A stretch of DNA of 10,797 nt, taken from the NCBI GenBank assembly GCA_021372695.1, contig JAJFTY010000238.1, forward strand, positions 1 to 10,797, given 5' to 3'. The position numbers and the translations under genes are program-made. Positions 1,589 to 6,487 of the stretch are shown one piece after another (positions within the stretch are counted from its first letter, which is position 1; each line of letters opens with the position of its first letter). The notes beneath the pieces were generated by a model. The model was not told the origin of the DNA. It ran no database searches and was given only the letters and a program-made list of their open reading frames with translations. Origin of the DNA: Deltaproteobacteria bacterium. Its GTDB lineage: Bacteria > Desulfobacterota > Syntrophia > Syntrophales > UBA5619.

Positions 1589-1592
1589 TCAA
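1573..1592. promoter_or_regulatory. Inverted repeat TTGAC-N10-GTCAA at the 3' end of the Crp/Fnr gene
   Basis: A perfect 5-bp inverted repeat, TTGAC (1573-1577) and GTCAA (1588-1592), overlaps the stop codon of the regulator gene. The half-sites resemble FNR-family half-sites, but the 10-base spacing is unlike the normal 4, so binding by the regulator is doubtful. It could also be a weak RNA hairpin after the stop. Confidence 0.25.
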
Positions 1593-2269
1593 TCCGCTTC
1601 CGCCAGCTCGCCGAGCGCCTCCCGATTCAGAATCCGGACCGACCGGCCGTCTACCGTGAGCATCCCGGCCTCGCTCATCCTTCTGAGCGCCCGCGAAAGA
1701 GCCTCGGGCGTGGCCCCGAGGATCTTGGCCAGTTCCCGCTGCGTGACCGTCAATTCCAGCAGGTCCGTCGTCTTTCCGCTCCCTTCCTGCGGGGCATGAA
1801 CCAGGAAGGAGGCGATCCGTTGGGGGAGCTCCTTCAGGGCCAGGGATTCGATCAGGGTCATGGCTTCCTTGAGGCGGTCGGAGAGGATCCGGATGACGTT
1901 CACCAGCAGACGCGGCTCCTGCATGGCGACGGCCTCCATGACCGGTCCGGGGATCAGAAGAACGGCGCTCTCTCCGATGGCCTGGACGTTCGCGGGGAAC
2001 GGCGCGACGGCAAAGGCGGTGCACATGCCGAACGGGTCCCCGGGGCCAAGGAGGTTCAGGGTCTGCTCCTTCCCCTCTGCTGAAATCTTGTAGAGCTTCA
2101 CCTGTCCCGTGACGACGACATAAAAGGCGCGGACAGGGTCCGTTTCGCCGATGATCGTCTCCCCGGGCTTGCAGCTTCTGTACAGGGCGCGCTCCGCCAG
2201 CGCCTTCAGCTTTTCGTCAGGCACCCCCTGAAAAAGGGGCAACTCCTGCATCTGTTTGAACACGTCCAT
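1589..2269 (-). CDS. Crp/Fnr family transcriptional regulator without Fe-S cysteines
   Basis: The product is 226 aa, a standard length for the family. Residues about 10-125 form the cyclic-nucleotide-binding-like beta-roll (GETIIGETDPVRAFYVVVTG, then LLGPGDPFG). A long dimerisation helix follows (about 120-145), then a winged helix (about 150-218) with TQRELAKILGATPEALSRAL. The recognition helix contains E189-x-x-S192-R193, equivalent to the E-x-x-S-R of FNR that reads TTGAT half-sites. The only cysteines are C33 and C83, so the FNR [4Fe-4S] ligand set is absent; a DNR/NNR-like or HcpR-like sensor of NO or redox state is possible, ligand unknown. The start at 2269 has a GGGGAAGG Shine-Dalgarno. 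An FNR-type box at 3205-3218 is a plausible target. Confidence 0.93.
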   Translation of the reverse strand: MDVFKQMQELPLFQGVPDEKLKALAERALYRSCKPGETIIGETDPVRAFYVVVTGQVKLYKISAEGKEQTLNLLGPGDPFGMCTAFAVAPFPANVQAIGESAVLLIPGPVMEAVAMQEPRLLVNVIRILSDRLKEAMTLIESLALKELPQRIASFLVHAPQEGSGKTTDLLELTVTQRELAKILGATPEALSRALRRMSEAGMLTVDGRSVRILNREALGELAEAD

Positions 2270-2553: not shown

Positions 2554-2703
2554 TCAATTCTCCGTCTCTGTTGGCTTTTTCTCTCCGCTCTCGACCGAGC
2601 AGCCTTTGCGCATTCAGGTCGAAATGCCCAGCCGGGGCAGCAGCCACCCCTGGAGAAAGAACCACACCGCGATCACAATCACGAACAGCAGCAAATCGTT
2701 CAT
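2554..2703 (-). CDS. Predicted small membrane selenoprotein (in-frame UGA = Sec30, U-x4-C motif)
   Basis: The ATG at 2703 has an excellent Shine-Dalgarno, GGGAGG, ending 7 bases upstream. It opens MNDLLLFVIVIAVWFFLQGW, then LLPRLGIST, then UGA at 2616-2614. The same frame continues for 19 codons as MRKGCSVESGEKKPTETEN to a second stop (2556-2554), giving 49 aa with selenocysteine at 30 and C35. Residues about 4-22 form one transmembrane helix. Basic residues after it suggest the redox tail faces the cytoplasm. A hairpin with a GGUC loop 17 nt after the UGA matches bacterial SECIS architecture (see 2587-2603). The gene starts 58 nt after the thioredoxin stop on the same strand, so they probably form one transcript. 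I recall similar small proteins with Cys in the first position of such a pair, but cannot verify this. The conservative alternative is a 29-aa peptide (2614-2703) ending at the UGA. Decoding requires SelA/B/C/D elsewhere in the genome. Confidence 0.72.
2587..2603 (-). promoter_or_regulatory. Putative bacterial SECIS element
   Basis: In the mRNA the hairpin is GCU-G-CUC-GGUC-GAG-AGC: three pairs, a bulged G, three pairs, and a GGUC tetraloop. From memory, E. coli fdhF has GGU-U-GCA-GGUC-UGC-ACC, the same plan. The loop begins 17 nt after the UGA here and 18 nt after in fdhF. An alternative fold has six continuous pairs (CUGCUC with GAGCGG, one G-U) and loop GGUCGA; it also exposes GGUC. The bulged base is G rather than the U of fdhF. 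Confidence 0.65.
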
Positions 2704-2722
2704 TTTCGATCCTCCCTGATCC

Positions 2723-2737
2723 CCTCTGTCGCAGAGG
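2723..2737 (-). other. Small hairpin between thioredoxin and selenoprotein genes
   Basis: A perfect 6-bp stem with a 3-base loop, CCTCTG-CGA-CAGAGG on the minus strand, lies in the 58-nt gap between the two genes. No U-run follows, so it is not a convincing terminator. It might affect processing or relative expression of the two cistrons. Confidence 0.4.
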
Positions 2738-3100: not shown

Positions 3101-3343
3101 TTTTCCTCCTCTGGAATTGATCGTATCTATGTTTGTTCGCGTTTCGCGCATGGCCCCATCCATTCGTCAGGGCTGAAGCATGGACCGGCTCGGGGTGGTT
3201 GTCATTGATCCAGGTCAATGACGCCGGGCCATCGAGGGCATATTTACAAACGCGGGATGGATGGCTATTTTTTAGTAGCATTGACCTGTTGGCCGTCCCT
3301 GCCCTGCGCAGGGCCAAGAGCCGTAACAAAGGGGGGAACGAAC
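3101..3343. other. Divergent regulatory region between thioredoxin and efflux operon
   Basis: No gene is seen. The region separates divergent genes and contains the FNR-type box with a plus-strand -10 at the right spacing. A weaker minus-strand -10 candidate, CATGCT (3182-3177), sits at the mirrored distance for the thioredoxin side. Confidence 0.7.
3205..3246 (+). promoter_or_regulatory. FNR-type box and class II promoter for the DUF2892-efflux operon
   Basis: TTGATCCAGGTCAA (3205-3218) matches the FNR/DNR consensus TTGAT-N4-ATCAA with one mismatch. Its centre is 3211.5. TATTTA at 3241-3246 fits a -10 element (5 of 6 bases), which puts the start near 3253 and the box at -41.5, the classic position for FNR-family activation. 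The leader to the DUF2892 start would be about 91 nt. That the nearby Crp/Fnr protein binds here is inference from its E-x-x-S-R helix. Confidence 0.65.
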
Positions 3344-3589
3344 ATGAAGGTGGAACATTATGTCCGGGCCATTGCCGGCAGCTTTGTCCTGATCTCGGTC
3401 CTGCTGGCCTATTTCCACAGCCTGTATTGGCTGTTTTTCACCGCCTTCGTCGGGCTGAATCTGCTGCAGTCCGCTTTCACAAAATGGTGTCTGATGGAAA
3501 ATTTTCTCGAAAAGCTGGGCGTTCCCCGGGATAACCCGTGCAGATGCGATGCCACCCGCCCTTCAGGAGAACCATCCCCGTCCCGCTGA
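3344..3589 (+). CDS. DUF2892 (YgaP-like) small inner-membrane protein
   Basis: The product is 81 aa. Residues 1-62 match the DUF2892 pattern: MKVEHYVRAIAGSFVLIS as the first helix (about 5-23), then SLYWLFFTAFVGLNLLQSAF as the second (about 26-46), followed by TKWCLMENFLEKLGV, which resembles the conserved Cys-containing end of the family. The tail from about 63 carries C67 and C69 and is probably disordered. The ATG at 3344 has a GGGGGGAA Shine-Dalgarno; a longer frame from 3218 has no support. It is the first gene of the presumed efflux operon, with TolC 79 bp downstream. The family's biochemical role is not known to me; in YgaP it is the membrane anchor of a rhodanese. A role in sulfur or redox handling is speculation. 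Confidence 0.88.
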   Translation: MKVEHYVRAIAGSFVLISVLLAYFHSLYWLFFTAFVGLNLLQSAFTKWCLMENFLEKLGVPRDNPCRCDATRPSGEPSPSR

Positions 3590-5051: not shown

Positions 5052-6487
5052 AGACCGCCTTTTTGAACATCCGGAGCACTTCAAGACCCGACGACTTCGC
5101 GGGAAGACCTCAACCCGTCGAGCCCTGGATCGGAGTCCTGAGCAGCCGCCGGCAGCCAGTGCTGAAGAGATCGTCACCCCAGCGGACCCCGGATCGGAGT
5201 CCGGGGCAGGCGCCGGGGTCCAGTGTCTTACTGGATACCGGCTTTCGGCGGTATGACGGCCGGGTGGATTTGGGACTTGTTACGAGTTCATCAAATCCTG
5301 AAACTTTTGAAGATCACGACTTCCAAGTTGCGCGAAAGTCTCCTCCCGGCCATTCCCCAGGCCGCAGGGTGGGGCGCCTGCCCGTCCTGCTTTTGGCGGC
5401 AGCGCTTTTCCTGGCCGGTTGCGGCGAGAAGGCGCCGCCGGTCGGCACCCAGACGGCACGGACCCCGGTCCGCGACGTGACGATCGCGGCGCTTACCCCC
5501 GTCGCCGTCGATGAGTTCTACGAGGCAACCGGAACCGTGAAGGCCGTCCGCACGAGCGTCGTCGCCAGCCGGGTGATGGGCACGGTCACCTCCCTTCTCG
5601 TCAAGGAGGGGGACCCGGTGGAGCAGGGGCAGTTGCTGCTGACGATCGATGACCGCGAGGCGGTGCAGAAGGAGCGTGGGGCCGAGGCCGGCCACCGGGA
5701 GGCTCAGAAGGCGCTCGAGGCGGCCGCGCGAAACCACGAACTGACGGACATCACGTATCAACGCTACCGGAAGATGTACGAGGAGAAGGCGATCTCACGG
5801 CAGGAGATGGATCAGTTCGAAACGCAGAACCGGGTGGCCGGACTCGAAAAGGAGCGGGTGAAGGAGATGGTGGACCGGGCCGCGGCCGGGCTTGCCGAGG
5901 CCCGCATTTACCGGGGCTTCACCTGGGTGACTTCACCGATCCGCGGCGTCGTGACCGAGAAGAGGACGGAAGTCGGCAGCATGGCGGTTCCCGGAATGCC
6001 GCTCCTGATGGTGGAGAACGCGGCGGCCTTCCGGGCGGAAATCGCCGTGGATGAAAGCCTCTCGGGCCGGCTCAAGATCGGACAGCCGGTTTCGGTCTCC
6101 ATCGAGGCCGTCGGACGGGAGATCACGGGAAGGATCGCAGAGATCGTGCCGGCCGTCGATCCGCTGTCGCGTTCCTTCATCGTGAAGGTACCCATCAGCG
6201 GCCCCGGACTGAGGACCGGCCTCTACGCCAAGGTCCGCATCCCCGGTGGGAAGAAAGAGCTTCTCCTGGTGCCCCGTTCCGCCATCGTCGAAAAGGGGCA
6301 GCTCACCGGCGTCTATGCGGTGGACGGTCAGGGGGTCATCACCTACCGCCTGATCCGGACCGGCCGCACCTATGACAACCGGCTGGAGATCCTGTCGGGG
6401 CTCAAGACCGGCGACCGGATCATCGTCGGAGGGGTCGAAAAGGCAAACGATGGCGGCATCGTGGAGCAGAGGAAGCAGGGATCATGA
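5048..6487 (+). CDS. RND efflux periplasmic adaptor (membrane fusion lipoprotein) with repeat-derived N-terminal extension
   Basis: The frame encodes 479 aa. From residue 108 it is a typical HlyD/AcrA-like adaptor: lipoprotein signal [17 protein letters not shown] (C125 of the long form), first lipoyl half with [20 protein letters not shown], a coiled-coil hairpin (about 210-295), second lipoyl half with [18 protein letters not shown], then beta-barrel and membrane-proximal domains. The start at 5048 has GGAGGGGGAGG upstream and overlaps the TolC stop (ATGA). The first 107 codons look unrelated to any adaptor, and codons 42-83 are repeat R3 read in frame. A GTG at 5369 would give a normal short lipoprotein signal but has only a weak AGG seven bases upstream. 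Which start is used decides whether the protein is a lipoprotein with or without a cytoplasmic leader. The stop overlaps the permease start (ATGA at 6484-6487). Confidence 0.9.
5124..5225 (+). repeat. Degenerate direct duplication inside repeat-derived segment (5124-5161 and 5188-5225)
   Basis: Two 38-bp segments, 5124-5161 and 5188-5225, align without gaps with about 7 mismatches, sharing GGATCGGAGTCC, GCAG, GCCGG and CCAGTG. The period is 64 bp. The left copy looks like a decayed arm of the same element as R3, so more than one insertion or an internal duplication has occurred. Confidence 0.6.
5172..5294 (+). repeat. Dispersed palindromic repeat, copy R3 (inside the adaptor frame)
   Basis: It starts CGTCACCCCAGCGGACCCCG, continues with an arm matching R2 in opposite orientation, then CTGGATACCGGCTTTCGGCG and GTATGACG, and ends with the shared tail at 5274-5294. 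It reads through without a stop, giving peptides such as [11 protein letters not shown], typical of translated copies of this repeat class. Confidence 0.85.

What the first reader, a model, noticed from the sequence alone, without database searches (positions are those of the whole stretch)
2554..2703. Undescribed 49-residue membrane selenoprotein hidden behind an in-frame UGA
A tiny minus-strand gene with an excellent Shine-Dalgarno encodes one transmembrane helix and LLPRLGIST, then UGA, then 19 more codons in the same frame containing a Cys five residues after the UGA (U-x4-C, the layout of a redox pair). Standard gene callers would either miss it or cut it at 29 residues. It sits directly behind thioredoxin. 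Sequence shows the frame, Shine-Dalgarno, TM helix, UGA and Cys; selenocysteine is inferred.
Basis: partly seen in the sequence, partly recalled or inferred. Interest (0 to 1): 0.88.

Follow-up and report, generated by a model that had tools for sequence, protein, structure and literature searches.

The report
Overlooked tiny membrane selenoprotein family
This 49-residue gene, which gene finders cut short at an apparent stop codon, very probably encodes a tiny membrane protein that carries selenocysteine, and it belongs to a widespread bacterial family that the databases we searched do not recognise.

Summary
The finding holds. Window 2554-2703(-) encodes a membrane helix, then LLPRLGIST-UGA-MRKGC, and the UGA is almost certainly selenocysteine (Sec). 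(1) The gene is in 78 of 155 genomes of a Syntrophales-like order and 167 of 395 genomes sampled from its phylum. Of 192 loci fetched, 190 could be counted: UGA is codon 30 in 190 of 190, with Cys at +5 in 170. (2) The 12 codons after the UGA are 48.5% identical on average, against 8.1% after the trx stop of the same loci. (3) Homologues with Cys at that position exist (24 among 233 held proteins). (4) The hairpin behind the UGA meets published bacterial SECIS criteria and covaries. (5) All 167 carriers have SelB or tRNA-Sec. Pfam, NCBIfam and a 2026 table of 119 selenoprotein families show nothing like it. Redox genes recur beside it: thioredoxin, YgaP-like TM, DsbD_TM. Best reading: a membrane-anchored Sec/Cys redox peptide on the cytoplasmic face, recycled by thioredoxin. 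Sec is strongly inferred; the function is inferred. The window's own genome is not held.

The parts
2554..2703 (-). Selenopeptide gene: ATG 2703, Sec-UGA 2616-2614, final UGA 2556-2554; 49 residues
   Evidence: homologues
2711..2717 (-). Shine-Dalgarno AGGGAGG, 7 nt before the ATG
   Evidence: sequence
2632..2700 (-). Membrane helix, residues 2-24
   Evidence: AlphaFold2 helix 2-24, mean pLDDT 91 and 90 for residues 1-10 and 11-20, 63 for 21-30; hydrophobic sequence
2614..2616 (-). In-frame UGA, codon 30 (Sec)
   Evidence: UGA in 190 of 190 countable copies; Cys in 24 of 233 held database proteins
2599..2601 (-). Cys35 at U+5, possible resolving residue
   Evidence: first Cys at U+5 in 170 of 190 copies
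2585..2602 (-). bSECIS hairpin: 6-bp stem, loop GGUCGA at 2596-2591, 17 nt between UGA and loop
   Evidence: criteria from PMC13188914
2762..3100 (-). Thioredoxin gene (CGPC) directly upstream; likely electron donor
   Evidence: PF00085; directly upstream in 33 of 192 loci
3218..3589 (+). Divergent frame with a YgaP-like TM domain; the true start is probably inside the frame
   Evidence: PF11127; the same family directly downstream of the gene in 15 of 192 loci
1589..2269 (-). Crp-type regulator, next gene downstream
   Evidence: PF00027 and PF13545; a Crp-type gene near in 28 of 192 loci, mostly on the other strand

Best explanation
It is a single-pass membrane selenoprotein. SelB, guided by the hairpin 17 nt behind it, decodes the UGA at codon 30 as Sec (strongly inferred, about 0.97). 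The helix anchors it, and the lysine-rich tail with the Sec lies on the cytoplasmic face (inferred, about 0.8). Sec30 attacks an oxidised substrate at the membrane surface (peroxide, disulfide or persulfide), forms a selenenylsulfide with Cys35, and is reduced again by the thioredoxin encoded just upstream (inferred, about 0.55). The confidence given is for the whole chain.
For: UGA at codon 30 in 190 of 190 and Cys at +5 in 170 of 190 countable copies; coding conservation past the UGA with controls. Cys at the UGA position in 24 of 233 held proteins, 23 of them with Cys at +5. bSECIS: the window meets the four published criteria; covariation beats 500 of 500 shuffles; 160 of 190 genes pass my version of the criteria against 45-58 after synonymous randomisation. 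Sec genes go with it. Thioredoxin directly upstream on the same strand in 33 of 192 loci; in L150 and L183 the order is arsR, Sec peptide, FmdB-like, trx, DsbD_TM. Lys+Arg average 4.4 in residues 23-44 and 0.77 in 1-20.
Against: No selenium, peptide or activity has been measured. The window's own genome is not held. Thioredoxin is adjacent in 33 of 192 loci only, and some recurring neighbours are not redox genes (response-regulator-like 17 loci, ABC ATPase 13, 3D domain 11). Seven of 190 copies have no Cys within 14 residues of the Sec, so a Sec/Cys pair cannot be needed everywhere. 30 of 190 genes fail my SECIS test, and two of the five pair measures do not exceed the shuffles. The tail is modelled as disordered, so Sec-Cys contact is not shown.
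Confidence: 0.6

Rival explanations
1. A selenoprotein that binds metals or metalloids: Sec and the Cys residues at the membrane surface hold arsenic, mercury or copper for a sensor or transporter.
For: ArsR-type regulators in 9 of 192 loci, overlapping the gene start by 4 nt in four; U-x4-C and, in Cys forms, C-x4-C spacing.
Against: The commonest conserved neighbour with a redox role is thioredoxin; I saw no metal exporter among the annotated clusters, but I annotated 16 cluster representatives only. ArsR-family proteins can sense H2O2 and control thioredoxin (RexT, abstract of PMC8960804).
Confidence: 0.15
2. A selenoprotein that is a small subunit of a larger membrane redox complex, with the Sec as one relay in it.
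For: YgaP-like TM directly downstream in 15 loci, DsbD_TM near 10, Fe-S proteins in two clusters (11 and 10 loci).
Against: No single membrane partner recurs in most loci, and partners differ between subfamilies.
Confidence: 0.2
3. A 29-residue membrane peptide that really ends at the UGA; what is conserved behind it is an RNA element such as an attenuator.
For: Database gene calls end there (202 of 233 held proteins); a conserved hairpin is present.
Against: Amino-acid level conservation behind the UGA, Cys homologues that run on with the same motif, and the link with Sec genes.
Confidence: 0.02
4. The UGA is read as Trp or by ordinary read-through, not as Sec.
For: Six database proteins have Trp at this place.
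Against: The alternative residue in 24 proteins is Cys; the hairpin fits a bSECIS; tRNA-Sec, SelA or SelB accompany the gene. The Trp forms are best explained as gene calls under code 4 (inference).
Confidence: 0.01

Closest known systems
Bacterial selenoprotein families of PMC13188914, Table 1 (119 families/subfamilies; section 7 parts 1 and 2 read)
   Same: In-frame UGA, bSECIS, Cys homologues, redox-type Sec plus Cys
   Different: The table lists no stand-alone membrane-helix family and no U-x4-C motif. The nearest motif is U-x4-U in TsoB (rhodanese/DsbD fusion-like, NF045694); NCBIfam gave no match to it
Cys-containing small membrane proteins with ...LPxxG[IV]PTCMSGSC (P0123-P0136 and others)
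   Same: Same length class, helix, LP-x-x-G motif and Cys at the Sec and +5 positions; homologous by the profile search
   Different: Cys instead of Sec; named only 'hypothetical protein' where named, one from a Planctomycetes MAG (P0126)
Eukaryotic selenoproteins S and K
   Same: Works like: one membrane helix with a Sec in a flexible tail. For SelS a selenosulfide bond with a nearby Cys has been proposed (abstract of PMC3628699 in search listings); SelK is recalled
   Different: No Pfam match of the window protein to any family up to E = 1; other domain of life, size and SECIS type

Membership tests
Bacterial selenoprotein | In-frame UGA with coding sequence conserved on both sides | tested here: met
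   190 of 190 copies; 48.5% against 8.1% and 5.7% identity in controls
Bacterial selenoprotein | bSECIS: loop 3-9 nt, stem 4-16 bp, G in first two loop positions, spacing 16-37 nt, MFE at most -7.5 kcal/mol (PMC13188914) | tested here: met
   Window: loop GGUCGA, 6 bp, 17 nt, -9.6. Family: 160 of 190 pass my coding of it, 45-58 of 190 after synonymous randomisation
Bacterial selenoprotein | Sec/Cys pairs among homologues | tested here: met
   24 of 233 held proteins have Cys there; their DNA was not seen
Bacterial selenoprotein | Sec machinery in the same genome | tested here: inconclusive
   Own genome not held. In relatives met: 167 of 167 carriers of the phylum sample have SelB over cut-off (159) or a tRNA-Sec of 74-79 bits (8)
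Bacterial selenoprotein | Selenium in the product | not testable with these tools
   needs 75Se labelling or mass spectrometry
Selenoprotein families modelled in NCBIfam or Pfam | Match over the model's cut-off | tested here: not met
   Window: none in Pfam up to E = 1. Eight family members in NCBIfam: two weak matches, best E 0.078. Eight Cys homologues: no NCBIfam match up to E = 1, only sub-cut-off Pfam matches
Thioredoxin-fold selenoproteins | Thioredoxin fold | tested here: not met
   Model: helix 2-24 and a disordered tail; no Pfam match
Selenoprotein S / K | Sequence homology | tested here: not met
   No Pfam match up to E = 1; a weak relation cannot be excluded in 49 residues

The most novel reading that the evidence does not exclude
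The gene marks a phylum-wide membrane selenol system: a bare membrane helix with a Sec/Cys tail, charged by thioredoxin and controlled by ArsR- or Crp-type redox or sulfide sensors, that clears persulfides or peroxides at the inner membrane of anaerobes. It has a paralogous type (GGPG-U-TSQSC) that can overlap it in tandem, so these tiny selenoproteins form a class of their own.
Probability: 0.3. Interest if true: 0.88.

Novelty: new variant of a known kind. Interest (0 to 1): 0.82.

Why it matters
A Sec gene found in 167 of 395 sampled genomes of a phylum matches no family model I searched, and is called as a 29-residue hypothetical protein if at all. Selenoprotein counts for these bacteria would then be too low, and very short selenoproteins would be missed systematically. 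The deep-Sep authors say their method may drop selenoproteins that lack Cys homologues (PMC12013277, passages); here Cys homologues exist but are short and unnamed. The peptide is also a minimal membrane selenoprotein, small enough to be made synthetically and tested.

Tried and rejected
Own-genome search: no genome is held. Megablast of the window against plasmids gave one 94-base RND match. L008 (Dehalococcoidia) is a chance match without the UGA and was dropped. One base-pairing register does not fit all 79 unique order sequences (70% of cells paired), because subfamilies use shifted registers; so covariation was counted in the window's subfamily only (40 of 43 unique sequences, three with a different hairpin register left out) and the others were tested by energy. 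Trp-at-30 proteins (P0013-P0017, P0137) and the Arg form P0155 are not counted as Cys homologues. A plasmid search with one Cys homologue found nothing. Literature searches listed no paper that I recognised as describing this family; I read passages or sections of four papers only (PMC13188914 section 7 parts 1-2 and passages; PMC9312934 and PMC12013277 passages; PMC8960804 abstract and outline). Haft and Tolstoy 2025 is not held, and the older tables of predicted families were not read. Trees, fold search and viral scans were not run.

Rows left out of counts. One of the 89 rows (G002:C121:5461-5520, cut by the contig end) was not taken as a copy; 84 of 89 sequences (window and 88 loci; L027 masked, L097 broken, L099 partial, L100 and L102 paralogues left out); 79 unique of those 84; 192 loci, from 89 plus 108 phylum loci less 5 repeats; 190 counted (L099 and the masked L027 out; L097, L100 and L102 in). 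The 108 phylum loci do not cover all 167 genomes with a match, and one search did not list its weakest rows. One search listed 120 of 167 hits and one search listed 120 of 451. The 42 genomes below the SelB cut-off were picked by best E-value (all weaker than 1e-56, the rest stronger than 1e-75), which agrees with the tally of 353 over cut-off.

The 0.25 that stood under best explanation was meant for a rival; the evidence has not changed.

Full report
What is in the sequence. On the minus strand, 58 nt after the stop of a thioredoxin gene (CGPC, PF00085; distance), lies an ATG preceded by AGGGAGG. It opens MNDLLLFVIVIAVWFFLQGWLLPRLGIST, then UGA, then MRKGCSVESGEKKPTETEN and a second UGA. Rfam has no match over gathering score in the window, and Pfam has none for the product up to E = 1.

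Homologues. Of 233 database relatives held end at the residue before the UGA. The genomes show the rest. Of eight loci found in the GTDB collection, seven carry the UGA at the same place followed by U-[MV]-[RK]-x-x-C; the eighth is a chance match. A profile search that reads through stops found the gene in 78 of 155 genomes of the order of G005 (L004 and L005 are titled Syntrophaceae) and in 167 of 395 genomes drawn from its phylum. Every listed row contains a TGA; the weakest rows are not listed. I fetched 192 loci including the window, of which 190 could be counted. Codon 30 is UGA in all 190. The first Cys after it is at +5 in 170, +6 in 6, +2 in 4, further on in 3, and absent within 14 residues in 7. 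P23 and G26 are invariant, W14 is present in 183 and T29 in 185; median length 52, range 41-68.

Is the stretch behind the UGA protein? Among 33 loci with thioredoxin directly upstream, the 12 codons after our UGA are 48.5% identical on average, the 12 after the thioredoxin stop 8.1% and the 12 after the gene's own final stop 5.7%. Proteins with Cys at position 30 exist: P0012 (GIPTCLDQSC), P0018, P0019 and 20 more with Cys also at +5, and P0172 without it. One is named as from a Planctomycetes MAG (P0126). P0012 and the UGA gene of L059 agree at 43 of their first 48 residues, the C/U position counted as a difference. Six proteins have Trp there, which I take for gene calls under code 4, and one has Arg. 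No Cys form was seen in the genomes I read.

SECIS. A 2026 review gives the criteria: loop 3-9 nt, stem 4-16 bp, G in the first two loop positions, 16-37 nt from UGA to loop, MFE at most -7.5 kcal/mol (PMC13188914, passages). The window's hairpin has a 6-bp stem, loop GGUCGA, 17 nt and -9.6. In 40 sequences of its subfamily 93.2% of cells pair, 30 cells are changed on both sides (shuffles 8.5), and 0 of 500 shuffles reach the covariation score; slid registers pair 33-46%. Two other measures, the number of pairs with a change on both sides (4, shuffles 3.5) and further pair types (9, shuffles 8.6), do not exceed the shuffles. RNAalifold finds six of the seven pairs unaided. Over 79 unique sequences the stretch is more stable than synonymous-codon variants (mean z -2.5; p below 0.05 in 59 of 79), and in 70 of 79 the base at +18 lies in a hairpin loop. 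With my own coding of the criteria 160 of 190 genes pass, against 45-58 after synonymous randomisation. Thirty fail; in some of them the fold is stable but the stem is not contiguous, which my test does not accept.

Sec machinery. The window's own genome is not held. tRNA-Sec is over cut-off in 5 of 6 genomes of the first loci, best hits 71-79 bits, and the sixth has selA. That model also reaches its cut-off in 5 of 14 control genomes, so I rely on hits above 70 bits. In the phylum sample 353 of 395 genomes have SelB over cut-off. The gene is in 159 of 353 and in 8 of the other 42 (Fisher p = 0.0014). All 8 have a tRNA-Sec of 74-79 bits and 7 have selA. Of the 34 genomes with neither SelB nor the gene, 12 have selA. 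So the gene is in 166 of 372 genomes with SelB or SelA and in 1 of 23 with neither (p = 4.6e-5). The genomes are related, so the p-values are guides only.

Neighbours. In 192 loci thioredoxin is directly upstream on the same strand in 33 and near in 39. A zinc-ribbon gene (PF09723, FmdB-like; that name is recalled and from PMC13188914) is adjacent on the same strand in 30. A Crp-type gene is near in 28, mostly on the other strand. A YgaP-like TM gene is directly downstream in 15. Fe-S proteins (11 and 10 loci), DsbD_TM (10), ArsR (9), C_GCAxxG_C_C (7) and YgbA_NO (6) recur (Pfam of representatives). In L150 and L183 the order is arsR (4-nt overlap), Sec peptide, FmdB-like, trx, DsbD_TM; in L177 no DsbD_TM and in L200 no FmdB-like gene was detected. 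Some recurring clusters are not redox genes: response-regulator-like (17), ABC ATPase (13), 3D domain (11) and unknowns (the first two judged from their sequence only). In the window a YgaP-like TM gene diverges from trx and a Crp-type gene follows. An ArsR-family protein that senses H2O2 and controls thioredoxin is known (RexT, PMC8960804, abstract).

Model. AlphaFold2 gives one helix (residues 2-24) and a disordered tail; mean pLDDT 68. Lys+Arg average 4.4 in residues 23-44 and 0.77 in 1-20, which by the positive-inside rule (recalled) puts the Sec on the cytoplasmic side, where thioredoxin is. I therefore propose a membrane-tethered Sec/Cys redox couple reduced by thioredoxin. Shown: conserved UGA, coding sequence on both sides, Cys alternatives, covarying hairpin, company of Sec genes, redox neighbours. 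Inferred: Sec insertion, topology, selenenylsulfide, thioredoxin as donor, substrate.

Novelty. No Pfam or NCBIfam model matches over cut-off. Table 1 of PMC13188914 lists no such family. Searches listed no paper that I recognised as describing it. Most subscription papers and Haft and Tolstoy 2025 could not be read, so an unseen mention is possible.

Noticed in passing
L100 (G002:C121:5270-5410), L102 (G016:C5:22288-22422), and the end of the gene in L002 and L006: A paralogous short gene MSWV...RIPRRGGPG-UGA-TSQSC, also with U-x4-C. In L002 and L006 the family gene ends in ATGA, where an ATGAGCTGG start (MSW) overlaps it, a tandem pair.
   Followed up: partly
L087, L088, L094, L095 and L090, L091, L096, L101, L103, L104: Subfamilies without Cys at U+5 (UMVQARQ type, and UxCPDGKDSR-like type with Cys at +2 in some), so the partner of the Sec may differ.
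   Followed up: partly
P0013-P0017, P0137 (protein database): Relatives with Trp at the Sec position, probably metagenome gene calls under genetic code 4; such calls could serve as a marker for hidden UGA genes.
   Followed up: no
L097 (G048:C15:6704-6799): A degraded second copy with a TAG inside the helix, in a genome that has another, intact-looking copy (L079).
   Followed up: no
window 2723-2737 (-): A perfect 6-bp hairpin CCTCTG-CGA-CAGAGG between the thioredoxin stop and the gene's Shine-Dalgarno; no T-run follows.
   Followed up: no
window about 2390-2530, 1300-1450 and 5130-5260: Stretches whose translations share phrases such as FAGVT, SGEGRNP and DTGFRRYD look like copies of one dispersed intergenic repeat; seen by eye only.
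   Followed up: no
L150, L177, L183, L200: A compact redox gene cluster: arsR overlapping the Sec peptide by 4 nt, then FmdB-like, trx and DsbD_TM genes in most of them.
   Followed up: partly
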